Origin: a virus
Virus record (IMG/VR): IMGVR_UViG_3300037104_000892
Coordinates: 1 to 64,000 of that record
DNA length: 64,000 nucleotides
Reading direction: 5' to 3' (one strand)
Shown: one piece after another, positions 16,535-27,972 of the stretch
Layout: each line of letters opens with the position of its first letter
Numbering within the stretch: position 1 is the first letter of the stretch
Position numbers and translations under genes: made by a program
The notes under the pieces: model-generated
Databases searched by the model: none
What the model saw: the letters and a program-made list of their open reading frames with translations, nothing else
Told to the model about the DNA's origin: nothing

Positions 16535-17239
16535 TTATTTTTTTAATTTTCTTCCATATATCCACCCCTTAATTAGATATTGATCAACATTTTCCTTTTT
16601 AGTTGCTAAAGTTTCTGATGTTAAAGGATTTATTAACCATTTTATACCAAATTGGGAATTTAATTCACCACATTGTCGTTTATGTCCTGTGTTAAATTTT
16701 TTTAATTTTTCTTTATGTTTTTTATTTAAAGGTTTTCGTTTTATACCCTTTGTTTTTCCTATAAGAGATTTACTTATTTTTTCCTTTGTTTCTTGAACTT
16801 GCTTTTTTCTTGTTAATGGATATTTTCTATTTTTATATAATCTTGTTTTTTCTTCTGCAGAATAATGCTTATCTTTCATGTACCCGGTTTTTCCGGTTTG
16901 AGTTTTTCTACATTTTTCTTTTGATTCTTCACTCCAACAATCTTTAACATTATGCCCACCCTTCCAACTAATATTATAACCTCCTTGTGATATGTGTGTT
17001 TTGTATAATCTTATGTATTTTTCTTGAGCATCAAATGCTTCTTTTCTTGTTGGAAACAATTCTAAAATTTCTTTTTTAAAATTTTCTTTTCCATATTCAT
17101 TAACTTTTTGCCCGAATAAAATTCCGCTCCCTAAATATTTATCTTCTTTGGGCTCACAAATAGATGATCTATCACCAACATATTGGTGTCCGTTAATGAT
17201 ATTTGTTGTTATGTAAACGTAATGAAATTGTTGAGACAT
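16535..17239 (-). CDS. GIY-YIG homing endonuclease
   Basis: 234 residues. The GIY-YIG core starts FHYVYITTNIINGHQYVGD and includes YLGSG and the catalytic Glu region. Several NUMOD3-like repeats (SKSLIGKTKG) and a C-terminal IKWLINPLT...GWIYGRKL segment follow. This is a Seg-like free-standing mobile gene, relative of the copies at 31091, 46124, 51248, 53153 and 61147. A late-type box precedes it. Confidence 0.9.
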   Translation of the reverse strand: MSQQFHYVYITTNIINGHQYVGDRSSICEPKEDKYLGSGILFGQKVNEYGKENFKKEILELFPTRKEAFDAQEKYIRLYKTHISQGGYNISWKGGHNVKDCWSEESKEKCRKTQTGKTGYMKDKHYSAEEKTRLYKNRKYPLTRKKQVQETKEKISKSLIGKTKGIKRKPLNKKHKEKLKKFNTGHKRQCGELNSQFGIKWLINPLTSETLATKKENVDQYLIKGWIYGRKLKK

Positions 17240-17644: not shown

Positions 17645-18676
17645 TTAAAATTTTGTTATAAATGCCTCAAGATATTGTTTTATCTGTCGATACCTATCAA
17701 CATAAGCATAATTTATTTTCATCTTTTGTTTATCTTCACTATCTTCTTCTTTGATATAAGTATGAGGAAATGGAAACATGTGAAGACTTTTATGGCCGAC
17801 AAATATATTCTTATAATGGAAATCGTCAAGTTTATCTCGTTCTTCTTTAGGTAATCGTGATCCATCATCGACATAAGGAGCATCTTTCATAAGATAAATG
17901 TAAAGATCAACTTCATTAGCTTTTTCAACCCATGGGTCAACTTTCAATTCCTGATTAAATGCATATTGAGCGTATCCTTTTGTGATTAACAAATCTGTAT
18001 CAATAAATAACAATTTGTTTGCTAATCTTGTATGTTTTATGATATTTTTAGCATGTTCTGTAGCAATTAACTGTAAATCATCCATTGAAAAGTTTGTGCT
18101 TCCAATGTTCAAATCTCTTGCTGTTTCAGGACACCAAACTGTATTGTAATGTTCCGCTAAGTGTTGCGCTAATGTTGTTTTGCCAGTTGATTCTGTTCCA
18201 ACAATTGCAATTTTCTTTACGTAATAGTCTTTGGCAAAGTTACTAAGATAGTCCCAATTGGTAAGAGGTTTGTTTCTTATCATTGTAGCTGAAACGGGAA
18301 TGATGTTTCTTGATTTGTCAAAAACCCAATTTTCAGCACCAGCTATTTCGGCAAACACTTTTCCGTAATCTTCAGATGTAAAAATTCTGTCAATCTTTCC
18401 AAAACGTTCTCTGACTAAATGACCCCAAAATGCTGATAATTCGTCGCTTGTTTCAAATTTCGGTTCTTCTGCATTGAGGCCAAACACTTCAACTTTAGGG
18501 TCATCAAGATAAGTAGATAAAACCCATTTAAGTCGATATTTATATGGGATAGGTTCATCGGGACTTGCTGCAACAAGAATAAGTAATTTGTCGCAATTTG
18601 ATTTGGCATACTCTATAAGAGCCATGTGGCCTTTATGAAAAGGCATGAATTTTCCAAGTACGAATCCTGTTACCAT
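17645..18676 (-). CDS. nadR: NadR-like bifunctional NMN adenylyltransferase / ribosylnicotinamide kinase
   Basis: 343 residues with both NadR enzymatic domains and no HTH. The N-terminal nucleotidyltransferase has FVLGKFMPFHKGH (HxGH-type motif, residues 5-17) and SATMIRN near residue 150. The C-terminal P-loop kinase has VGTESTGKTTL (near residue 180), then CPETARD. Together these phosphorylate nicotinamide riboside to NMN and adenylylate NMN to NAD. Last gene of the operon that starts with the TonB receptor; overlaps the macro-domain gene by 7 bases. Confidence 0.92.
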   Translation of the reverse strand: MVTGFVLGKFMPFHKGHMALIEYAKSNCDKLLILVAASPDEPIPYKYRLKWVLSTYLDDPKVEVFGLNAEEPKFETSDELSAFWGHLVRERFGKIDRIFTSEDYGKVFAEIAGAENWVFDKSRNIIPVSATMIRNKPLTNWDYLSNFAKDYYVKKIAIVGTESTGKTTLAQHLAEHYNTVWCPETARDLNIGSTNFSMDDLQLIATEHAKNIIKHTRLANKLLFIDTDLLITKGYAQYAFNQELKVDPWVEKANEVDLYIYLMKDAPYVDDGSRLPKEERDKLDDFHYKNIFVGHKSLHMFPFPHTYIKEEDSEDKQKMKINYAYVDRYRQIKQYLEAFITKF

Positions 18677-19146
18677 TTTCCAGGGTTATGATAATTAACG
18701 ACTACAACATGACAATCTTTCATTTCTGTATCGATAATTTTGCTTATTCTATCCCAATCTCCACCGGCTAATCCTGCTCCAATTTTGGGCATTCCAATTG
18801 TTTGACCTTTGAAATTGTAGTTAATTTTTCTCATTACTAATGTGATAGCTTCGTAATCAACGGGATTAGCACTGCCATCAATATGATTTAGACCATAATT
18901 GAATTGCGTATAACCATTTATGATAATAAAATCATAATGTCTGGCTTTACGATATGTGTAACTTCCAAGTTTAAGAATATCTCCTCTTGTAGTTTTACAA
19001 TCAGCTTCATAAGCTTCAGGAAACTGCTCTTTAATTTGTTTGGCAATTCCAGCACCCATTGTACAAAAACAATTAGCGCCATGAACTATGGCATCAAATT
19101 GCCTTATTTTTGCGTATTCGAGTAAATCTCCGTTAATGATTGTCAT
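18670..19146 (-). CDS. Macro domain protein (ADP-ribose binding or hydrolysing)
   Basis: 158 residues. Begins MTIINGDLLEYAKIRQFDAI, then VHGANCFCTMGAGIA, the ADP-ribose loop, and GMPKIGAGLAGGDW, the phosphate loop. This resembles Poa1/ALC1-type macro domains, which remove ADP-ribose or ADP-ribose 1''-phosphate. It is embedded between NAD genes by overlapping ends. Likely role: clearing or reversing ADP-ribose signals or protein ADP-ribosylation during infection; this part is inference. Confidence 0.9.
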   Translation of the reverse strand: MTIINGDLLEYAKIRQFDAIVHGANCFCTMGAGIAKQIKEQFPEAYEADCKTTRGDILKLGSYTYRKARHYDFIIINGYTQFNYGLNHIDGSANPVDYEAITLVMRKINYNFKGQTIGMPKIGAGLAGGDWDRISKIIDTEMKDCHVVVVNYHNPGKW

Positions 19147-20020
19147 ATAAATGATTGTTAATAATATACATTAAAACTTTTGAATCCATTTTATGTTCTG
19201 TTAAAAGCTCATAATTAGGAAATGATTTTGTCATTAAAATTTCTCTAACTTCAGAAGATGAAATTTCCAATATATCAGTTTCTTTGTTAAGAAAAATATG
19301 AGGGGCTTTTAAGTACCAATCAACTTTTAAATCTCTATTTATACCTTTTCTAGGAACTACAACAAATCGTACCATTCTCTCAAGTTCTTCAAAATTTACC
19401 CACTTGTCAAAACTATTAGCATTATCAAGTCCAATTATCATACTAAAATTGAATTTTTCGTTCAATTCTTTATCCATTTTCAATCTTTTGAAAAAATTGA
19501 AAGTTTCTCCGGCCAATTCATTTTTTATTTCGTAATCAAAGACTTTTATTCTTCCATCAACTTCTGCAGCTAATTTACACATTTCCAAACGATCTTTCGC
19601 AGATGCCATGTGTTTTCCATACATGTGTTTATAAGCTGGCATTATCCAAACTTCGTCAAATTCTCCTGAAGTATTCAAAACGAATTGAGCAGTTTGAATG
19701 TGACCTAATGTGATGGGATCAAATGCTCCTCCAAATATTGCAACTTTAGTTTTTCTTCCTAAAGATTTGTATTGCAAACTTCTTGATTTAATTTTTTCTA
19801 ATGTAGTCTTAATTCCTTCGGCAACATCCCAACCACTTTCATTATACAATTGAATTAAAGAACACATTAAATCAGCAGATTCCTCTTTAAGATTCTGGAT
19901 ATCATTCCACTTCATAAGTTCAAAGAATTCGTTTTGAATATCTTTAAGTCTTTCATTTAATGGCGTATATCCGAAGTTATCTTCAAAAACTTTTTTAACG
20001 TTCTTTTGTAATTCTTTCAT
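19133..20020 (-). CDS. MazG-like domain fused to NadD adenylyltransferase
   Basis: 295 residues. Residues 1-80 look like a MazG-type pyrophosphohydrolase, with NEFFELMKW and EESADLMCSLIQLYNE (the EExxD metal site). Residues 90-290 are a nicotinate/nicotinamide mononucleotide adenylyltransferase: VAIFGGAFDPITLGHI near residue 93 and ILEISSSEVREIL near residue 262. The fusion could couple house-cleaning of nucleotides to NAD(H)/NaAD synthesis. Overlaps genes on both sides. NadD assignment is firm, MazG is good. Confidence 0.88.
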   Translation of the reverse strand: MKELQKNVKKVFEDNFGYTPLNERLKDIQNEFFELMKWNDIQNLKEESADLMCSLIQLYNESGWDVAEGIKTTLEKIKSRSLQYKSLGRKTKVAIFGGAFDPITLGHIQTAQFVLNTSGEFDEVWIMPAYKHMYGKHMASAKDRLEMCKLAAEVDGRIKVFDYEIKNELAGETFNFFKRLKMDKELNEKFNFSMIIGLDNANSFDKWVNFEELERMVRFVVVPRKGINRDLKVDWYLKAPHIFLNKETDILEISSSEVREILMTKSFPNYELLTEHKMDSKVLMYIINNHLYDNH

Positions 20021-20250
20021 AATTCAAATATTTCAAGTGTTCCTCTTTGTTCTAATCTTTGTATCAAATTTCTCCACTCAATTGTATCAACCGGAGCTGG
20101 ATAATTAAAGACTATTAAATCGTCTTCATCCATATTAGCAACAAAATCTCCATCTTGTATTTTTTCAATTATTTTTGATACTTTTTCTCTATCCATGAGA
20201 GGTGCAGCCATAAAGTGGCCGTCTCCATCCATTGCAATTATTATTTTCAT
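20017..20250 (-). CDS. Hypothetical protein in the NAD operon
   Basis: 77 residues: a short beta strand with MDGDGHF, then charged helix and MDEDDLIVFNYPAP. Overlaps both neighbours by 4 bases, so co-translated with the NadD fusion. Function unknown. Confidence 0.55.
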   Translation of the reverse strand: MKIIIAMDGDGHFMAAPLMDREKVSKIIEKIQDGDFVANMDEDDLIVFNYPAPVDTIEWRNLIQRLEQRGTLEIFEL

Positions 20251-20456
20251 AACTCAATCATATAACGATTTTTCAATAAATGTAAGCTTCCATTTTTCTT
20301 TTCAAGGAAAACTAATCCTGCCATGAGAATATCACCTGAGTGTTCTCTAACAACATTGTGATATTTTATTTCTTTGTAATTTTCAACATCCCAAAATGAT
20401 TTTCCATCAGCATTAAGATCATCTTTTTCAATTATTATACAATCAACTTTTTTCAT
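20247..20456 (-). CDS. Hypothetical protein in the NAD operon
   Basis: 69 residues, beta-rich. Overlaps the following gene by 4 bases and meets the TonB receptor stop. Function unknown. Confidence 0.5.
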   Translation of the reverse strand: MKKVDCIIIEKDDLNADGKSFWDVENYKEIKYHNVVREHSGDILMAGLVFLEKKNGSLHLLKNRYMIEL

Positions 20457-22396
20457 TAAAATGTGTATTTAAGTGATACCATTGCGTTTCTATTACCCAT
20501 TACCCAATATTTTGGTGTTCCATCAAATCCTATAATTCCATTCGACAATATCAGAGAATTAAATAAGTTGTTGGCGTTAACTCGTAAATCAATTCCCTTT
20601 AAATGTATTCCGGCATAAGCACTAAATAGCGTAAAATTGGGCAATTTATATTCCTTTGTATTTGCTAAGTCAATATAACTTGACCCATTATATCTTATGT
20701 TTAATCCAACATATCCTAATTTCTTATAGTTGTAAATTCCATCAACATTTATGATAACATTTGGAGTTAAAATGGGTTGGAATATAACATTTTGATCTCG
20801 TATTTGATTTATTGAAAAATTTTCATTTGTTTTAACTTCAAATCCATTAAACCAACGATATCTAAAGTCCAATTCAATTCCACTTCTATATGAATTATCT
20901 ACATTTTGATGTAATAATATTGAGTTTGGACCCATTTTCCCATTAAGAACAATTTCATCTTTAAAGTCCATGTAATAGAAATTACCTTTGAATGTACACC
21001 ATTCATCTAAGTATTTGTAACCTATTTCATGATCGAATACTACTTCAGGTTTTACATAGTTTTCGTCAGCGAGTATGAAATTATCATTTCCATTAAATAA
21101 ATCAGTTCTCGTAGGTTCTCTGTGTGTTTTTCCAATTCCGTAATAAACTACAGATTTATCTGTAACTCTTAGTGTTGCTCCACCAGACCAATTCCAAAAA
21201 TTGTATGTTTTTGGAAGCATAGTTTGATCTCCATGATAAATAAACAAATTATAACGATATTGTATATCTCCAAATAAAATGAACTTTTTATTATCACCAA
21301 AAATCAATTCACCTTTAGCGTAAGGACTTGTTTCACATATATAACCTGTGTTTTTGTAATCTCGAATCAAATCTGTATAGCCATAATGAGTTCGAAAATA
21401 TTCATATCCATTTACTCCTAAATTGAAATTCGTATGATCACCATGAAAATTGTAATTCATTGTGCTTCCTAGCCAATTTGATAAAACGTTTAATCTACCG
21501 ATTCCTGAAGCTCTATAATGAGCATTGTCTGTATCATACCATCCATCTAAATATGTGTCATAAAGTATAAACGAAAAATTTCCTTTGTTGTAATGTGCTT
21601 GATTATGTATCTGATAAAAATGATCTGTTTCAGCACTATTTTGGGTATTAAATCTGGGATTTTTCCTGATACTGTCAAGAGATTCTCCCATCCATGCCAT
21701 TTGATTTCGAGCATTTCCCACAAAACCATAAAACTTCCAGTTTCCAAGTTTTAAACCATAGAAAGCCGATTGTGATTTATTGCCTGAATTGTATTTATAA
21801 CCATCGGTTTGAATGGATGAAGCTTTAATGAAAAAATTCTTCGAGTTAACTCCTGCTGATAACTGAAACGTATTGTATGATCCATAAACAGTTGAAACTT
21901 CTCCAGAAAATTTATCTGCAAATTGATATGAATCAAAACTAATACTTCCACCATAAGAGGAAACACCACTTTTTGTAAGTCCTGCACCACGAATAATTTG
22001 TACATCACTAACTGAATTTAAAAAATCAGGATAGTTATTGAAATAAACTCCTTGATCTTCAGGTTCATTCATTGGAACACCATTTAAAGTAACATTTATG
22101 CGAGTTTGATCAATACCTCTTAAACGATAATAAATGTAGCCAAAACCTGTGCCATTATCCGAATAAAAAGAGACAGATGGTGAAGTACTAAAAAGTATAG
22201 CTGGTTCTGAATTTTGTGATTTTAAAGTAATGTCCGCTTTTTCCATGTTTGTAAAAGAAAAAGGAGCAACTTTAGGTGCTGTATAAGTTCCTTTAACTGA
22301 AACATCAGAAAGTTGAATTGTATCTCTAATTGTATGCTGAGCACTAATCAACAAACAACTTAATAAAATAAATAAAGTTAATGCAATTTTTTTCAT
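20456..22396 (-). CDS. TonB-dependent outer-membrane receptor
   Basis: 646 residues from ATG 22396, where a signal peptide begins (MKKIALTLFILLSCLLISAQ). A TonB-box-like RDTIQLSDVSVKG is followed by a plug domain with YYRLRGIDQTRINVTLNGVP and IIRGAGLTKSGVSSYGG. A 22-strand-type barrel follows, ending in an aromatic C-terminus (VSLKYTF). It lacks the usual N-terminal carboxypeptidase-like domain. These receptors import scarce nutrients across the outer membrane. Next to pnuC and nadR, the likely cargo is nicotinamide riboside or a related pyridine. First intact gene of an operon behind a class I promoter. A phage-encoded receptor of this kind is very unusual. Confidence 0.9.
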   Translation of the reverse strand: MKKIALTLFILLSCLLISAQHTIRDTIQLSDVSVKGTYTAPKVAPFSFTNMEKADITLKSQNSEPAILFSTSPSVSFYSDNGTGFGYIYYRLRGIDQTRINVTLNGVPMNEPEDQGVYFNNYPDFLNSVSDVQIIRGAGLTKSGVSSYGGSISFDSYQFADKFSGEVSTVYGSYNTFQLSAGVNSKNFFIKASSIQTDGYKYNSGNKSQSAFYGLKLGNWKFYGFVGNARNQMAWMGESLDSIRKNPRFNTQNSAETDHFYQIHNQAHYNKGNFSFILYDTYLDGWYDTDNAHYRASGIGRLNVLSNWLGSTMNYNFHGDHTNFNLGVNGYEYFRTHYGYTDLIRDYKNTGYICETSPYAKGELIFGDNKKFILFGDIQYRYNLFIYHGDQTMLPKTYNFWNWSGGATLRVTDKSVVYYGIGKTHREPTRTDLFNGNDNFILADENYVKPEVVFDHEIGYKYLDEWCTFKGNFYYMDFKDEIVLNGKMGPNSILLHQNVDNSYRSGIELDFRYRWFNGFEVKTNENFSINQIRDQNVIFQPILTPNVIINVDGIYNYKKLGYVGLNIRYNGSSYIDLANTKEYKLPNFTLFSAYAGIHLKGIDLRVNANNLFNSLILSNGIIGFDGTPKYWVMGNRNAMVSLKYTF

Positions 22397-22585
22397 TATT
22401 TTTCGTGTATAGTAATTAGTACAAGTGTTTACTCCATTCATGACTGCGTATTTAATACGCTTAGTAATCTGAAATTCGTCGAAAGTATTTTCGTACTTGT
22501 TTTCGTGCATACAAGATACACAGAATTTGCACTTGTTAACGCAACCTTTTGTTGGAACTACGATTGAAATTGTCTGAATGTCCAT
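22397..22585 (-). pseudogene. 5' fragment of a radical SAM gene fused in frame to the TonB receptor
   Basis: The 63 codons ahead of the receptor start encode a radical SAM N-terminus: TKGCVNKCKFCVSCMHENKY has the CxxxCxxC cluster motif, then KRIKYAVMNGVNT. The frame then breaks into unrelated residues and runs on into the receptor signal peptide. This looks like a deletion or insertion junction. Confidence 0.65.
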
Positions 22586-22605
22586 ATTGATTTTCTGTTA
22601 CAATA

Positions 22606-22643
22606 CTAATATAATCAAAATAACTGATATAAAAAAATATTTA
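22606..22643 (-). promoter_or_regulatory. Class I promoter of the TonB-NadR operon
   Basis: AAATATTTTTTTATATCAG then TTTTGATTATATTAG on the minus strand, between pnuC and the receptor operon. Confidence 0.65.
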
Positions 22644-23201
22644 GGCAACTTTTTTCTGCCAATCATAAAATCCTTTAACAGCTAATCCTAAAAGAATCAA
22701 ATAAAGAAATGAAGAAACGAATAATCCTTTGAAAAGAAACATCCCAACATATACGAGATCAACAAAAATCCAAAGGTACCAATTTTCAATTTTTCTCTTT
22801 ACAAGTAATTGATTTGCGACTAAACTTAATACAGCTGTCATAGAATCAATATAAGGAAGAGATGCATTTGTGTATGTCTTAAAAATATAAGCTATGATTA
22901 AATAAGCTATAAGGATGGGTATAAGATAAATGACTCTTTGTTTGTTTGTGAGCTTTTCAACTTTAGTGATACTATTATCTTTAACTTCGCCTTTATAATA
23001 CCAAAGAAGGAATCCAATGACACCTTGTATTGCAAATATGCCTTGCAATATGAAATCAGCATATAGTTTTGTATGCCAAAATACAACAGCATATAAAATC
23101 ACTGCCCATATTCCTACAGGCCATGAGAGTAGTTTTCCTTTAGTCGTTAAGTATACACACAAAAGAGTTAAAAGAGCTGCAAAAATTTCTATCGTTAGCA
23201 T
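22641..23201 (-). CDS. pnuC: PnuC-family nicotinamide riboside transporter
   Basis: 186 residues with about seven membrane helices. Family features include LLSWPVGIWAVILYAVVFW near the N-terminus and NWYLWIFVDLVYVGMFLFKGL near residue 140. PnuC facilitates uptake of nicotinamide riboside, which is trapped by phosphorylation; the phage also carries the NadR kinase. The related thiamine transporter PnuT is similar, but the NAD gene context favours PnuC. Co-directional with the Tad2-like gene upstream. Confidence 0.9.
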   Translation of the reverse strand: MLTIEIFAALLTLLCVYLTTKGKLLSWPVGIWAVILYAVVFWHTKLYADFILQGIFAIQGVIGFLLWYYKGEVKDNSITKVEKLTNKQRVIYLIPILIAYLIIAYIFKTYTNASLPYIDSMTAVLSLVANQLLVKRKIENWYLWIFVDLVYVGMFLFKGLFVSSFLYLILLGLAVKGFYDWQKKVA

Positions 23202-23204
23202 AAC

Positions 23205-23405
23205 TTATTCAGTATAAATTTCCCAATCACTGTCCCATTCTTTTTCTGATCTCCATTTCCAAAATTCAGCCGGTGAACAAACTACGCTATCTTCCAATAA
23301 GTACATGCCTTTAGATGTCATTGACATCCATTCGTCTGGTGAAAAATAGTAATGTCTTACTTTTTTGCCTTCACGCATTGCGCGTATTGCTTCCAGTTTT
23401 GTCAT
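23205..23405 (-). CDS. Tad2-like (DUF2829) protein, possible anti-Thoeris sponge
   Basis: 66 residues. Begins MTKLEAIRAMREGKKVRHYY and ends SEKEWDSDWEIYTE, the typical start (EAI.A...GKKVR) and end (DW.I) of DUF2829/Tad2 proteins. Tad2 binds the gcADPR signal made by Thoeris TIR proteins and blocks the defence. Its place between pnuC and other NAD genes fits a role in NAD-signal counter-defence. The middle strand sequence is divergent, so this is a fold-level assignment. Confidence 0.6.
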   Translation of the reverse strand: MTKLEAIRAMREGKKVRHYYFSPDEWMSMTSKGMYLLEDSVVCSPAEFWKWRSEKEWDSDWEIYTE

Positions 23406-23697
23406 TGAATAAATTTTCTAAATTCTGTATATGTTTTTCAATATATTCTTTGTCAGCTTTTAAATTCTGAATTTTGTAAAAAATCCAAGAATCTGCAAGA
23501 GGTTTCGTATAATCTAATGTATTCATTACTACACGATACGTATCACCCATTTCTAAATCTTCTAATGTGGCCCAACGCATAAAAGGTTCAGGAGAAATTG
23601 AAATAAGTCTGCTCGGGACGTAAATTATACGTTTTGAGTTAAAATAACGCTTACAGAGAAATGTATCTCCTATATTTGGGCGTGGTAAATATTTCAT
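23371..23697 (-). CDS. Hypothetical protein
   Basis: 108 residues with an N-terminal beta-rich part (RPNIGDTFLCKRYF) and a helical C-terminus. Overlaps the Tad2-like gene by 35 bases, so tightly coupled. Function unknown. Confidence 0.5.
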   Translation of the reverse strand: MKYLPRPNIGDTFLCKRYFNSKRIIYVPSRLISISPEPFMRWATLEDLEMGDTYRVVMNTLDYTKPLADSWIFYKIQNLKADKEYIEKHIQNLENLFNDKTGSNTRNA

Positions 23698-24074
23698 GCT
23701 GCTAATGATTTTCTGACCATTTTTTCAAGTTTATCTTTGTCAGATATTTTGATAACCTGCATCCAATATTTTGGCATTTTTTTGAATACTAAAGCCATCT
23801 GTTTAGGAGATAAAAATCCGCGGGAGATGTAATGTGTTGCAAAAGAAGACAGAATTTCACCATCAACTCCACTAAAACCTACACCATTTGCGTCGCGTGT
23901 TTCTTCATGTTCCTTTTCCATTGAAGTCTGGAATTCATAAATCTTCAAAAGAGCTTGGGTAGCCCAAGTCTTATTCGTAGATAACTGTTTCTTTACGAAA
24001 TTACGAGTTTCACCTTTTGTAATTTTGTGTCCGATTCCAAGTGATACAATAGGGTCTTCATTTTCTACAAACAT
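23694..24074 (-). CDS. Hypothetical protein
   Basis: 126 residues from ATG 24074; the longer frame would read through the promoter. The N-terminus VSLGIGHKITKGETRNFV is followed by helical segments. First gene of the unit that includes the Tad2-like gene and pnuC. No family recognised. Confidence 0.55.
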   Translation of the reverse strand: MFVENEDPIVSLGIGHKITKGETRNFVKKQLSTNKTWATQALLKIYEFQTSMEKEHEETRDANGVGFSGVDGEILSSFATHYISRGFLSPKQMALVFKKMPKYWMQVIKISDKDKLEKMVRKSLAA

Positions 24075-24095
24075 GATGTTTAATTTTGATTGTAT

Positions 24096-24136
24096 AGTAA
24101 ATATAATCAAAATTTCTGACATAAAAAAATATTTTG
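24096..24136 (-). promoter_or_regulatory. Class I promoter, best match to consensus
   Basis: AATATTTTTTTATGTCAGAA then ATTTTGATTATATTTACTA on the minus strand, driving the Tad2-like/pnuC unit. Confidence 0.7.
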
Positions 24137-24189
24137 CCATTTATTTTAACAAAAACTTAACAATTTTAACACAATAATCAGATGCCTCG

Positions 24190-24205
24190 ATGAATATATA
24201 AAATA
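24190..24205 (+). promoter_or_regulatory. Class III (late-like) promoter box
   Basis: ATGAATATATAAAATA on the plus strand just upstream of the plus-strand HNH gene. Confidence 0.5.
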
Positions 24206-24208
24206 AAG

Positions 24209-24925
24209 ATGAATCACTTAAAAATATACGAGCTAATAATTCAAAAAGTAAAATCTGAAAATAGAATTAAAAGTAAGCAAATCTATTATGAAAATCATCA
24301 CATAATTCCTCGTTGTATGGGAGGATTGAATGTTAAAGAAAATTTAGTATTGTTAACTGCTCGTGAACATTTTATTTGTCATAAATTATTAGTATGCATT
24401 TATCCTAAAAATAGAAAACTTGTATGTGCATTGCATAAAATGATATATGGCAATACAAATAAATATGTTAAAACATCTAGAGACTATGCATATATACGAG
24501 AATTAATTTCGAAAATTCCTTTTTCAAAAGAAACTCTTGAAAAATTTCATAAAAGAATTCCCTGGAATAAAAATAAAAAAGGATTACAGCATCATACCGA
24601 AAATTCTAAAAAAATATTAAGCGAAAAAAATACAGGCGAAAATAATGCAATGTATGGCAAAAAAGGAGAAAAATCACCTTCCTTTGGTCTTAAACGTTCT
24701 GTTAAAGTAAAACAAAAATTATCAGAAGGAAAACTTGGTAAAAATAATCCTAATGCTGGAAAATATGAAATTCACACTCCAGATAATTTTTATTTTATTG
24801 CTGAAGGCGCTACTACATTTATCAATGAACATCCTGAATATAACATAAATAGACATTTCATTTATTCTGCTGCATCTGTTAATGGAAATTTGTATAAAGG
24901 TTGGCGTGTTAAAAAATTAAATTAA
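24209..24925 (+). CDS. HNH homing endonuclease (plus strand)
   Basis: 238 residues. HNH core YENHHIIPRCMGG with LLTAREHFICHKLL, then a NUMOD3 pair (NNAMYGKKGEK, SPSFGLKRS). A C-terminal NUMOD1-like GATTFINEHP...GWRVKKL ends the protein. It is inserted against the direction of the NAD genes, between a promoter region and pncA, overlapping the pncA 3' end by 9 bases. Confidence 0.9.
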   Translation: MNHLKIYELIIQKVKSENRIKSKQIYYENHHIIPRCMGGLNVKENLVLLTAREHFICHKLLVCIYPKNRKLVCALHKMIYGNTNKYVKTSRDYAYIRELISKIPFSKETLEKFHKRIPWNKNKKGLQHHTENSKKILSEKNTGENNAMYGKKGEKSPSFGLKRSVKVKQKLSEGKLGKNNPNAGKYEIHTPDNFYFIAEGATTFINEHPEYNINRHFIYSAASVNGNLYKGWRVKKLN

Positions 24926-25552
24926 GGGCAATACCCAACTTTCCAAAATATAAACTCCTGCTTCTTTAAGAAGCTCAAATGTTTCTTCTTTTTCTCCGAT
25001 AAATTTTATTGCGTCAATGATAAAATATGTGTCAAACCCAGCCATTGCTGAATCGATTGCAGTTTCTTTGCAACAATAATCGCCCGCAAGACCTGTGATA
25101 TAAGTTTCAGTTACTTTACGTTCATCAAGAAACTCTTTTAAGCCAGTTTCTCTAAATCCACTGTACCCTTGATCGGCATTATCTGTGCCTTTTTTGAAGA
25201 TATAGAAGTCTTTCTTACATAATGTTAAATCGAGATCAGGATGAAATTCTGCACCTGGTGTATCTTGCACGCAATGGTCTGGCCAAAGAGTTTCTTGCGT
25301 ATCAGGATGAAAATCACTGCCATTTCTTAATGTAGGCCAATATTTATCAAAAGGTTTTGTTCCAGGGTGTTGTGAAGCGAAGCCTTCATGATCAACTGGA
25401 TGCCAATCTTTTGTAAATATAATGAGGTCAAATTTTTCAAGAAGAGAATTAATTACTTGCACAACCGCGTCCCCCTCTGGTACTGCTAAACTTCCGCCTG
25501 GACAGAAGTCGTTCTGTACGTCCACCACGATCAGTGCTTTTTGTTTTTTCAT
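24917..25552 (-). CDS. pncA: Nicotinamidase (PncA)
   Basis: 211 residues. Catalytic Asp in LIVVDVQNDFCPGG (residue 11), metal ligands in FTKDWHPVDHEGFAS, catalytic Lys in YIFKKGTD, and nucleophile Cys in GLAGDYCCKETAIDSA. It converts nicotinamide to nicotinic acid, the entry to the deamidated NAD salvage route. Last gene of the NadE operon. Nicotinamide is also the by-product of NAD-cleaving defences, so recycling it would be useful to the phage. Confidence 0.93.
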   Translation of the reverse strand: MKKQKALIVVDVQNDFCPGGSLAVPEGDAVVQVINSLLEKFDLIIFTKDWHPVDHEGFASQHPGTKPFDKYWPTLRNGSDFHPDTQETLWPDHCVQDTPGAEFHPDLDLTLCKKDFYIFKKGTDNADQGYSGFRETGLKEFLDERKVTETYITGLAGDYCCKETAIDSAMAGFDTYFIIDAIKFIGEKEETFELLKEAGVYILESWVLPLI

Positions 25553-25553
25553 A

Positions 25554-25751
25554 TTATTTATTGTTAGGTTTTGCTATTGAAGCCGTTCTTACATCTGGGT
25601 TGTCCATCAATTTTTGAATATAAGCGTGTGGGCTTTTAATGTTGTCATAAATTAAGATGTTGCCATCTTTAAATTCTACCATTACTGAATATCCTCCTGG
25701 GACTAAAGATAATGGATTTGTGCGATATTCATCGCCTACTACTAATGCCAT
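25554..25751 (-). CDS. Hypothetical protein
   Basis: 65 residues, small beta-sheet type (GGYSVMVEFKDGNILIYDN). Lies between the HD hydrolase and pncA with 1-3 base gaps. Function unknown. Confidence 0.5.
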   Translation of the reverse strand: MALVVGDEYRTNPLSLVPGGYSVMVEFKDGNILIYDNIKSPHAYIQKLMDNPDVRTASIAKPNNK

Positions 25752-25754
25752 ATT

Positions 25755-26255
25755 TTAATTATTTGCTAATGTTTCTAATGCTGTCCAAAGTTCTTCATAC
25801 TTATGACTTTTAAGATGCCAAGCAAACGAATCCATTTCTTTTTGATACATTTTAAACATTGTACTGCCTGTATCTTTTGAATATTTCATGTTTGCATATC
25901 TGTCACAAAGTTTTATGAAAGTTGCGTGTTTATATCGATCTATACCTGAATAATACGCATGATTCGCTCTTTCTTCTCGATTTCTCCCTTTTTCATTTGT
26001 TAAAGCAAAAGCATATTCTGCAATAGTTTCATTGGTTGCTTTTTTAACATCATTGTAAGTTTTTCCAGTATCTTCGATAACGTCATGAACCCAACATCCT
26101 GCGATTACATCTTCTCTATCTTTTTCTGGAATTAAATGAATAAAGCGTTCAGCTATTTCAACCACCATTTTAAGATGAAATTCATAAGGTTTGTCTTGAT
26201 ATCTTTGATTAACATCCCTGTGACAACTGATTGCATATGTTTTTACGTCGACCAT
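25755..26255 (-). CDS. HD-domain hydrolase, SpoT/MESH1-like
   Basis: 166 residues. Conserved HD pattern: DKPYEFHLKMVVEIAERF, CWVHDVIEDTGKTYNDV (HD-x-x-E-D), and later KLCDRYANMKY (the distal Asp). This is the small-alarmone-hydrolase arrangement, which cleaves (p)ppGpp or NADPH in MESH1. Co-transcribed with NAD synthetase. Likely substrates are alarmones or NADP(H); the sequence alone cannot decide. Confidence 0.8.
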   Translation of the reverse strand: MVDVKTYAISCHRDVNQRYQDKPYEFHLKMVVEIAERFIHLIPEKDREDVIAGCWVHDVIEDTGKTYNDVKKATNETIAEYAFALTNEKGRNREERANHAYYSGIDRYKHATFIKLCDRYANMKYSKDTGSTMFKMYQKEMDSFAWHLKSHKYEELWTALETLANN

Positions 26256-26256
26256 A

Positions 26257-27972
26257 CTAAATGTTGTAATAGTTTATAAGTGTTTCTCTGTTACTGAATC
26301 CTCTACTTCTTGGAGAAATAATGACTGTTGGAGCATGCTGGCCAGCTTTAAAAACTGATCTCTTCATGCATTTAACTGCAAAATCAATTTGTCCTTCAAG
26401 TCCTTTTTTATCATATTTTCTAACTTCATCAATTTTTGGAAAATAATCAGGATTGGGTTCTTCTTCGTATAATTCTTTGAGAATCTGAACTTTATTTTTC
26501 CTGTCTCTTATTAACATTGCGCATATTCCACTCTGAACCCAATAATCAATCGGGTCTTCCATCGCGTCAGGTAATTCTGCAGCTGGAGCGAATTTTCCAT
26601 TAAATAAATCAACAGGAATAACTTCTTTCTGATAAATATATTTATTGATGTAATCAGCCAATTCATATATTTCAACTTTGGTTAAATCACCAATCAAAGC
26701 GTGAACTCCAATTGATCCAATATCATGGAATGCACACCATCCTAAAACTATTTCTGTATGATTTGCTGTAGCTACAATTCCTGAATCGAATATGTGTGTA
26801 GCACCAAGGCCTTGAACAGTCCTTAATGTTGCCTGGATTGCTGCTTTTCCAATTAATGAAAGTTCTTGTCCAAAAGCTTTGTCACTTTCTTTAACAATCT
26901 TTTCATATATTTTTTGGATTGGATTTGTATAGTAAGTTACTTCCAAATTATTAGCCAATTGTTTAACATATTTTAACGATTTTGTGTTTAAACTAGAAGG
27001 GTTCGTAATAAATATGCAATTTTCTTTTCCCATCGATTTGATAACTAAAGCAGCTACTACAGCTGAATCGATACCACCGGAAAGATGAACTTGAGCTTTA
27101 GGAGTTCTTGATAATTTGAAAAATTCTTTTTGTTCGAATATTAAAGCATCAGTTATTTCTTTGTATTTTGAAGGAGGAGAATATGTAGTTTTATGCATAT
27201 CAACTAACCCACTATATTCTTTGAATGATGGAGCAATGAACATGCATTCACCTTTTTCATCAAAAATAGATGAATGACCATCAAAAATGACCACATTTTT
27301 TAAAATATCACCAACACCGACGGCATTGACGGAAATAAATGGAATTTTTAATCCTTTTGAGATCGTTTTCCATAATTTCATTCTTTTTGCCTGTTTTCCG
27401 TAATAAAAGTAGGATTGATTGATATGAACTAACAATTCAGCTCCTTTTTTCACCATTTCTTCCGGAATATTACGACTATGATCGTATATCCAAGCATCTT
27501 CACATATTAGAATTCCGATATTTACATTTTCATTTCCAATACGACATTTGAAAACTTTTGATTCGTGTCCAGGATCGAAGTATTTTTTATCTTCGTGGTG
27601 ATCTGCAGATGCAAGAAGTTGTTTATGATATGTGCGTATTTGATCACAATCTATAATTGCAGCTGCATTTTTAAGTTTTGGAAAACCATTTGCATGCATA
27701 CCAAGATAATCAATGTAACCAATGATTACAGTACCGGTGTAATTTATTTCCTGTATGTATTCCTGAAGTTCATTTATTTTTGAATACTGATCTTTTATAA
27801 AATCTTCACGATCCCATAATGATCCGCACATATATCCAGTTATTGCTGTTTCTGGAAAGATAGAAAGATTGGCACCGTCTCCTTTATCACGTAATATACA
27901 TGCACGTATTTTCTCGAAGTTACGGTTAATGTCTCCAGTGATTGTGTTAATCTGATGAATTGATGGTGTCAT
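26257..27972 (-). CDS. nadE: Glutamine-dependent NAD synthetase
   Basis: 571 residues. The N-terminal nitrilase-type glutaminase has the Glu-Lys-Cys triad in SIFPETAITGYMCG, RTYHKQLL and IGILICEDAW. The C-terminal NAD synthetase has the PP-loop VHLSGGIDSAVVAALV near residue 295 and an ADP-binding segment with HTEIVLGWCAFHDIG. Makes NAD from NaAD, ATP and glutamine. First gene of a four-gene operon behind a class I promoter. Ends with TAG, one of few such stops here. Confidence 0.95.
   Translation of the reverse strand: MTPSIHQINTITGDINRNFEKIRACILRDKGDGANLSIFPETAITGYMCGSLWDREDFIKDQYSKINELQEYIQEINYTGTVIIGYIDYLGMHANGFPKLKNAAAIIDCDQIRTYHKQLLASADHHEDKKYFDPGHESKVFKCRIGNENVNIGILICEDAWIYDHSRNIPEEMVKKGAELLVHINQSYFYYGKQAKRMKLWKTISKGLKIPFISVNAVGVGDILKNVVIFDGHSSIFDEKGECMFIAPSFKEYSGLVDMHKTTYSPPSKYKEITDALIFEQKEFFKLSRTPKAQVHLSGGIDSAVVAALVIKSMGKENCIFITNPSSLNTKSLKYVKQLANNLEVTYYTNPIQKIYEKIVKESDKAFGQELSLIGKAAIQATLRTVQGLGATHIFDSGIVATANHTEIVLGWCAFHDIGSIGVHALIGDLTKVEIYELADYINKYIYQKEVIPVDLFNGKFAPAAELPDAMEDPIDYWVQSGICAMLIRDRKNKVQILKELYEEEPNPDYFPKIDEVRKYDKKGLEGQIDFAVKCMKRSVFKAGQHAPTVIISPRSRGFSNRETLINYYNI

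What the first reader, a model, noticed from the sequence alone, without database searches (positions are those of the whole stretch)
17645..27972. Ten-kilobase NAD acquisition and synthesis island in a phage
In three co-directional units, the phage carries an outer-membrane receptor, PnuC, NadR (NR kinase plus NMN adenylyltransferase), NadD, nicotinamidase and glutamine-dependent NadE. A Tad2-like protein, a macro domain and a MESH1-like hydrolase are interspersed. The set covers import of nicotinamide riboside, its conversion to NAD, and parts of the deamidated route. Known phage NAD-restoring pathways (NARP1, NARP2) use other or fewer enzymes. This looks like a broad counter to NAD-depleting defences with its own precursor supply.
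Basis: partly seen in the sequence, partly recalled or inferred. Interest (0 to 1): 0.92.

Follow-up and report, generated by a model that had tools for sequence, protein, structure and literature searches.

The report
Phage-encoded vitamin B3 uptake and NAD synthesis
A large bacterial virus carries its own supply line for the coenzyme NAD: a pore in the outer membrane and a pump in the inner membrane to bring in a vitamin B3 precursor, plus enzymes that turn it into NAD. The same outer pore beside the same enzyme occurs in dozens of other giant phages of Bacteroidota.

Summary
On one strand of a 69-kb virus contig lie NadR, a macro domain, a MazG-NadD fusion, a TonB-dependent receptor, PnuC, nicotinamidase PncA, a MESH1-like hydrolase and glutamine-dependent NadE, all with their main catalytic motifs. 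The 'Tad2-like' call is not supported.

New here: (1) the receptor can be tied to NAD precursors. 72 of 80 cellular (nearly all Bacteroidota) homologues sit beside NadR, usually as TonB-PnuC-NadR, and all 31 phage contigs found with the receptor also carry NadR. (2) Phage receptors form phage-only clades, so this is not host contamination. They include the 735-kb LR756501 and Lak phages; one relative was previously annotated 'SusC'. (3) Relatives place a genuine PncB in the same island, completing PncA-PncB-NadD-NadE; LR756501 has both complete routes. The window lacks PncB in 69 kb, and a truncated radical-SAM 5' end fused before its receptor marks where relatives keep it.

Best reading: a phage-owned NAD import and synthesis line, from Bacteroidota-type genes. 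Whether it mainly counters NAD-depleting defences or feeds a long infection is undecided. Phage NAD synthesis is known (KVP40, NARP1/2, gut jumbo phages); the outer-membrane import arm appears undescribed in the papers held.

The parts
17645..18676 (-). NadR: NMN adenylyltransferase plus ribosylnicotinamide kinase
   Evidence: TIGR01526 E 1e-54, PHROG 3462 E 2e-71; HxGH and Walker A invariant; nearest solved relatives are NadR 8x7f/1lw7
18670..19146 (-). Macro-domain (ADP-ribose) hydrolase, overlapping NadR and NadD
   Evidence: PF01661 E 1e-8, DarG-like, PHROG 335 E 2e-53; also in the island of L005, L008, L010, L104
19133..20020 (-). MazG pyrophosphohydrolase domain fused to NadD (NaMN adenylyltransferase)
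   Evidence: PF03819 + PF01467, TIGR00482 over cut-off; same fusion in L005, L008, L015
20017..20250 (-). 77-aa protein of unknown function in the overlapping operon
   Evidence: no family
20247..20456 (-). 69-aa protein of unknown function in the overlapping operon
   Evidence: no family
20456..22396 (-). TonB-dependent outer-membrane receptor with its own signal peptide; inferred NAD-precursor (NR) receptor
   Evidence: PF00593/PF07715; homologues linked to NadR in 72/80 cellular loci and 31/31 phage contigs
22397..22585 (-). Remnant: 5' end of a radical-SAM gene, in frame before the receptor
   Evidence: 63-76% identical to the start of ~300-aa radical-SAM ORFs in L002, L003, L005, L008
22641..23201 (-). 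PnuC nicotinamide riboside transporter
   Evidence: TIGR01528 over cut-off; aligns with solved PnuC 4qtn, WxxW conserved
23205..23405 (-).
24209..24925 (+). NUMOD3 homing endonuclease interrupting the island
   Evidence: PF07460
24917..25552 (-). PncA nicotinamidase
   Evidence: PF00857, PRK11609 E 3e-41; catalytic D, K, C conserved
25755..26255 (-). MESH1-like HD small hydrolase
   Evidence: best solved match Drosophila MESH1 3nqw E 2e-9; HD..ED motif invariant
26257..27972 (-). NadE, glutamine-dependent NAD synthetase
   Evidence: PF00795 + PF02540, PRK13981 E 7e-72; active-site residues invariant

Best explanation
The island is a phage-owned supply line for NAD with two arms. Import arm: the phage receptor takes nicotinamide riboside (or a close NAD precursor) across the outer membrane using host TonB energy, phage PnuC takes it across the inner membrane, and phage NadR phosphorylates it and adenylates it to NAD. 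Deamidated arm: PncA turns nicotinamide (including that released by NAD-cleaving enzymes) into nicotinic acid, a phosphoribosyltransferase makes NaMN, and phage NadD and NadE finish NAD. In the window the phosphoribosyltransferase must come from the host or from unseen phage sequence; in close relatives it is a phage PncB in the same island. The macro and MESH1-like proteins probably clean up ADP-ribose- or alarmone-type by-products (inference). The import arm resembles the TonB-PnuC-NadR operon of Bacteroidota and has since been inherited within phage lineages. Shown by sequence: gene identities, active sites, linkage, phylogeny. Inferred: the receptor's substrate, flux, and benefit. NAD supply during a long infection is the direct function; resistance to NAD-depleting defence is a likely but unproven benefit.
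For: Domain assignments and catalytic motifs. Cellular homologues of the receptor: 72/80 beside NadR, 49/80 with PnuC. Phage contigs: receptor and NadR together in 31/31, same strand in 30/30 measured, median gap 0.94 kb; PnuC in 25/31. Phage-only clades. PncB over curated cut-offs inside the island of relatives. LR756501 has PncB-NadE-TonB-PnuC-NadR-PncA contiguous plus NadD elsewhere.
Against: The receptor's substrate rests on gene linkage; its closest solved relative is the PQQ transporter PqqU/YncD. NadR scores below NCBI's NadR equivalog cut-off. The window lacks PncB, so its deamidated arm is incomplete as sequenced. No expression data. PnuC is missing from 6 of 31 receptor-bearing phage loci.
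Confidence: 0.8

Rival explanations
1. The island is primarily a counter-defence system: it rebuilds NAD after Thoeris, DSR, SIR2/APAZ or Avs-type NADases fire, as NARP1 and NARP2 do; the macro domain removes the ADP-ribose products.
For: PncA starts from nicotinamide, the product of NADases; a macro domain overlaps NadR and NadD; jumbo phages meet NADase defences such as Avs5, where NAD rebounds within 15 min by an unknown route (PMC12931631); the authors of PMC9503650 and PMC7824862 argue for this role of phage NAD enzymes.
Against: No dedicated inhibitor could be confirmed; the Tad2 call failed. A TonB receptor must be made, exported and energised, which suits slow supply better than emergency rescue (inference). 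Relatives also carry NAD consumers such as NAD-dependent DNA ligase.
Confidence: 0.4
2. The phage receptor is not for NAD precursors but alters the host surface (superinfection exclusion) or imports another cofactor or carbohydrate (as 'SusC').
For: The nearest solved receptor imports PQQ; a relative in LR745206 was annotated SusC for carbohydrate uptake (PMC9723777).
Against: Receptor beside NadR in 72/80 cellular loci and with NadR in 31/31 phage contigs; its neighbours are NAD genes, not a SusD-type partner.
Confidence: 0.12
3. The genes are recent host DNA or an assembly chimera.
For: The receptor ORF starts with a fragment of another gene, an unusual junction at 22396/22397.
Against: Uniform GC, homing endonucleases in and beside the island, phage-only clades, synteny with other phage contigs up to 322,902 bases.
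Confidence: 0.03

Closest known systems
Cellular TonB-PnuC-NadR operon of Bacteroidota (seen here in 49 of 80 loci)
   Same: Same three genes, homologous receptor at about 36-41% identity
   Different: In phages it forms separate clades, PnuC is sometimes absent or moved, and it sits beside PncA, PncB, NadD, NadE, macro and MESH1-like genes
KVP40-type phage NAD salvage (NadV, NadM/NatV, NadR, PnuC)
   Same: Phage-encoded PnuC and NadR; NAD made from an imported precursor
   Different: The surveys read here (PMC9503650, PMC7824862) describe NadV, NadM and NadR but no outer-membrane receptor, NadD, NadE or nicotinamidase; the window has no NadV-type gene
NARP1 and NARP2 (Osterman et al. 2024, cited in PMC12931631; enzymes from my own knowledge)
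   Same: Rebuild NAD from NADase products
   Different: They use ADP-ribose pyrophosphate plus nicotinamide, or nicotinamide phosphoribosyltransferase plus adenylyltransferase; here import, NR kinase and the deamidated route
Huge phage 5-SewaE (PMC10747093) and gut jumbo phages with NAD systems (Li et al. 2024, PMC11662467, not readable here)
   Same: Four enzymes converting nicotinamide to NAD in a phage; independent NAD synthesis
   Different: 5-SewaE's enzymes are not named in the text, and no TonB receptor is mentioned there; Li et al. could not be compared
Mar_Mega_1 / LR745206 'SusC' TonB receptor (PMC9723777)
   Same: The LR745206 receptor belongs to this family
   Different: There read as carbohydrate uptake; here PnuC and NadR are found immediately beside it (L019)

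Membership tests
Bacteroidota TonB-PnuC-NadR operon type | homologous TonB receptor, PnuC and NadR close together on one strand | tested here: met
   All three on the minus strand, 17645-23201, though in a different order and with other genes between
Preiss-Handler NAD pathway | PncA, PncB, NadD and NadE all present | tested here: not met
   PncA, NadD, NadE present; PncB family PF04095 absent from the 69,144-base record, which is a fragment; present in relatives G001, G004, G006, G007, G011, LR756501
PnuC nicotinamide riboside transporter | match over curated cut-off and WxxW motif | tested here: met
   TIGR01528 98.9 vs 42.45 bits; WxxW invariant
NadR (bifunctional) | NMN adenylyltransferase plus ribosylnicotinamide kinase domains with active motifs | tested here: met
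   Both domains, HxGH and Walker A invariant; score below the TIGR01526 equivalog cut-off
NARP2 / KVP40-type salvage | nicotinamide phosphoribosyltransferase (PF04095) | tested here: not met
   No match in the window's record; the record is a fragment
NARP1 | Adps plus Namat gene pair | not testable with these tools
   No dedicated model at hand; no such gene seen in 17-31 kb
Tad2 (23205-23405) | sequence match to Tad2/DUF2829 | tested here: not met
   No Pfam or NCBIfam match
Tad2 (23205-23405) | fold match to Tad2 | tested here: inconclusive
   Fold model pLDDT 56 from a single sequence, no PDB match
MESH1-like small alarmone hydrolase | HD..ED motif and best similarity to MESH1/SAH | tested here: met
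NR-specific outer-membrane receptor | demonstrated NR binding or uptake | not testable with these tools
   Linkage only

The most novel reading that the evidence does not exclude
Giant phages of Bacteroidota remodel the host envelope by installing their own TonB-dependent vitamin B3 receptor, and pair it with a complete second NAD route. The infected cell then makes NAD from outside precursors and from NADase products independently of host NAD genes.
Probability: 0.55. Interest if true: 0.78.

Novelty: new variant of a known kind. Interest (0 to 1): 0.66.

Why it matters
Phage NAD synthesis was known as an intracellular salvage trick. Here the phage also brings the outer-membrane step, so nutrient import through all envelope layers becomes part of infection. 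It is conserved in the largest known phages (LR756501, Lak), offers a function for receptors previously read as carbohydrate porins, and gives a testable prediction: NR in the medium should help these phages, most of all against NAD-depleting hosts. It also identifies a likely NAD-precursor receptor family in Bacteroidota for which no paper was found in the held library.

Tried and rejected
Host contamination (rejected by trees, composition and synteny). Tad2 for the 66-aa ORF (no sequence match; low-confidence fold). SusC or heme receptor for the TonB gene (neighbourhood says NadR; the heme/transferrin model is far below cut-off). Riboswitch control: Rfam found only tRNAs in the window, so no TPP riboswitch that might have pointed to thiamine and PnuT. 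Bacteroidota-type promoter motifs: one weak match, inside the NadR coding region, not used. NAD-dependent ligase as the obligatory consumer: present in some relatives only. No near DNA match among deposited phages. Li et al. 2024 on NAD in gut jumbo phages is not held, so overlap with it is unchecked.

Full report
Observation. The window is part of a 69,144-base IMG/VR virus record. Between 17.6 and 28.0 kb on the minus strand lie NadR, a macro domain, a MazG-NadD fusion, two small unknowns, a TonB-dependent receptor, PnuC, three small unknowns, PncA, a 65-aa unknown, a MESH1-like HD hydrolase and NadE. Neighbouring starts and stops overlap from NadR to the receptor, as in an operon. Catalytic motifs are intact. 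A NUMOD3 homing endonuclease interrupts the array, and phage genes (clamp loader, exonuclease, endolysin-type transglycosylase, homing endonucleases) occur elsewhere in the window. GC is uniform.

What the receptor is for. Its sequence gives no substrate; the nearest solved receptor is PqqU/YncD. Context does. In 80 cellular loci with the best homologues, nearly all Bacteroidota, NadR lies beside the receptor in 72 and PnuC between in 49. A profile search of viral contigs found 31 with the receptor: 30 have NadR in the fetched stretch, all on the same strand, median gap 0.94 kb, and the 31st has NadR 12 kb away. PnuC is present in 25. The search used receptor peptides only, so it was blind to NadR. 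The same pairing is in LR756501 (735 kb), LR745206, LR756502 and Lak-A1. The LR745206 receptor was described earlier as SusC for carbohydrate uptake (PMC9723777); the linkage argues otherwise.

Origin. Phage receptors and bacterial ones separate into very few blocks (4 label changes on the tree against about 26 when shuffled), and the window's receptor lies in a fully supported group of seven phage sequences. NadR behaves the same way. So this is old phage inheritance of Bacteroidota-type genes, possibly from more than one capture, not contamination.

The deamidated arm. The NAPRTase family is absent from the window's record but present in 12 of 22 related records; seven examined are PncB above the curated TIGR01514 cut-off. 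In L008 (G006) one strand carries an ammonia-type NadE, PncA, the MESH1-like gene, a radical-SAM gene, PncB, MazG-NadD, receptor, macro and NadR within 15 kb: a complete Preiss-Handler route plus the NR route. LR756501 has PncB, NadE, receptor, PnuC, NadR and PncA in 8.5 kb and a NadD elsewhere. In G004 (322,902 bases) the deamidated arm exists without the import arm, so the two arms are separable modules.

The window's own variation. The receptor's four nearest relatives in the tree all have PncB ahead of the receptor and no PnuC. The window has PnuC, no PncB, and the first ~55 codons of the radical-SAM gene fused in frame just before the receptor. The simplest reading is loss of the radical-SAM/PncB stretch in this lineage together with gain of PnuC (inference); PncB may still lie in unseen sequence.

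Function. Gene content supports import of NR and its conversion to NAD, and faster recycling of nicotinamide through NaMN to NAD. Whether selection is for surviving NADase defences or for feeding a long infection cannot be read from sequence. In favour of defence: nicotinamide is the NADase product, and a macro domain is embedded. In favour of supply: an exported, energised receptor is a slow device, and relatives encode NAD-dependent ligase. The Tad2 hint does not hold.

Known and new. Phage NAD synthesis is established: KVP40, NadV/NadM/NadR surveys (PMC9503650, PMC7824862), NARP1/2 (cited in PMC11984713 and PMC12931631), and a huge phage with four nicotinamide-to-NAD enzymes (PMC10747093). 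Papers on huge and Lak phages that I could search do not mention TonB or PnuC. Li et al. 2024 on NAD in gut jumbo phages could not be read. The outer-membrane import arm, its conservation and its link to a complete Preiss-Handler set appear new among the sources available.

Noticed in passing
window 29380-31050 (-): TROVE-domain (Ro60-like) protein next to the island; close relatives in L002 and L005 and a distant one in L014, also beside NAD-island genes.
   Followed up: partly
window 19133-20020; L005, L008, L015-L017: MazG pyrophosphohydrolase fused to NadD, conserved across phages down to 49% identity with both motifs kept; possibly a house-cleaning domain coupled to NAD synthesis.
   Followed up: partly
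window 39418-39490: tRNA with a CTA anticodon (ARAGORN: Pyl), a possible amber suppressor, although TAG still ends 5 of 45 long ORFs.
   Followed up: no
window 33155-35975 (+): Ice-binding-like protein and an OmpA-family protein on the opposite strand, unusual cargo for a phage.
   Followed up: no
L098 (contig labelled Deltaproteobacteria); L034 (labelled Thalassovita): L098's receptor falls inside a phage clade and L034's among Bacteroidota; both look like mis-binned contigs.
   Followed up: no
window 16535-17239: A GIY-YIG homing endonuclease matches PHROG 447, which is labelled 'NAD synthetase'; that PHROG label looks wrong.
   Followed up: no
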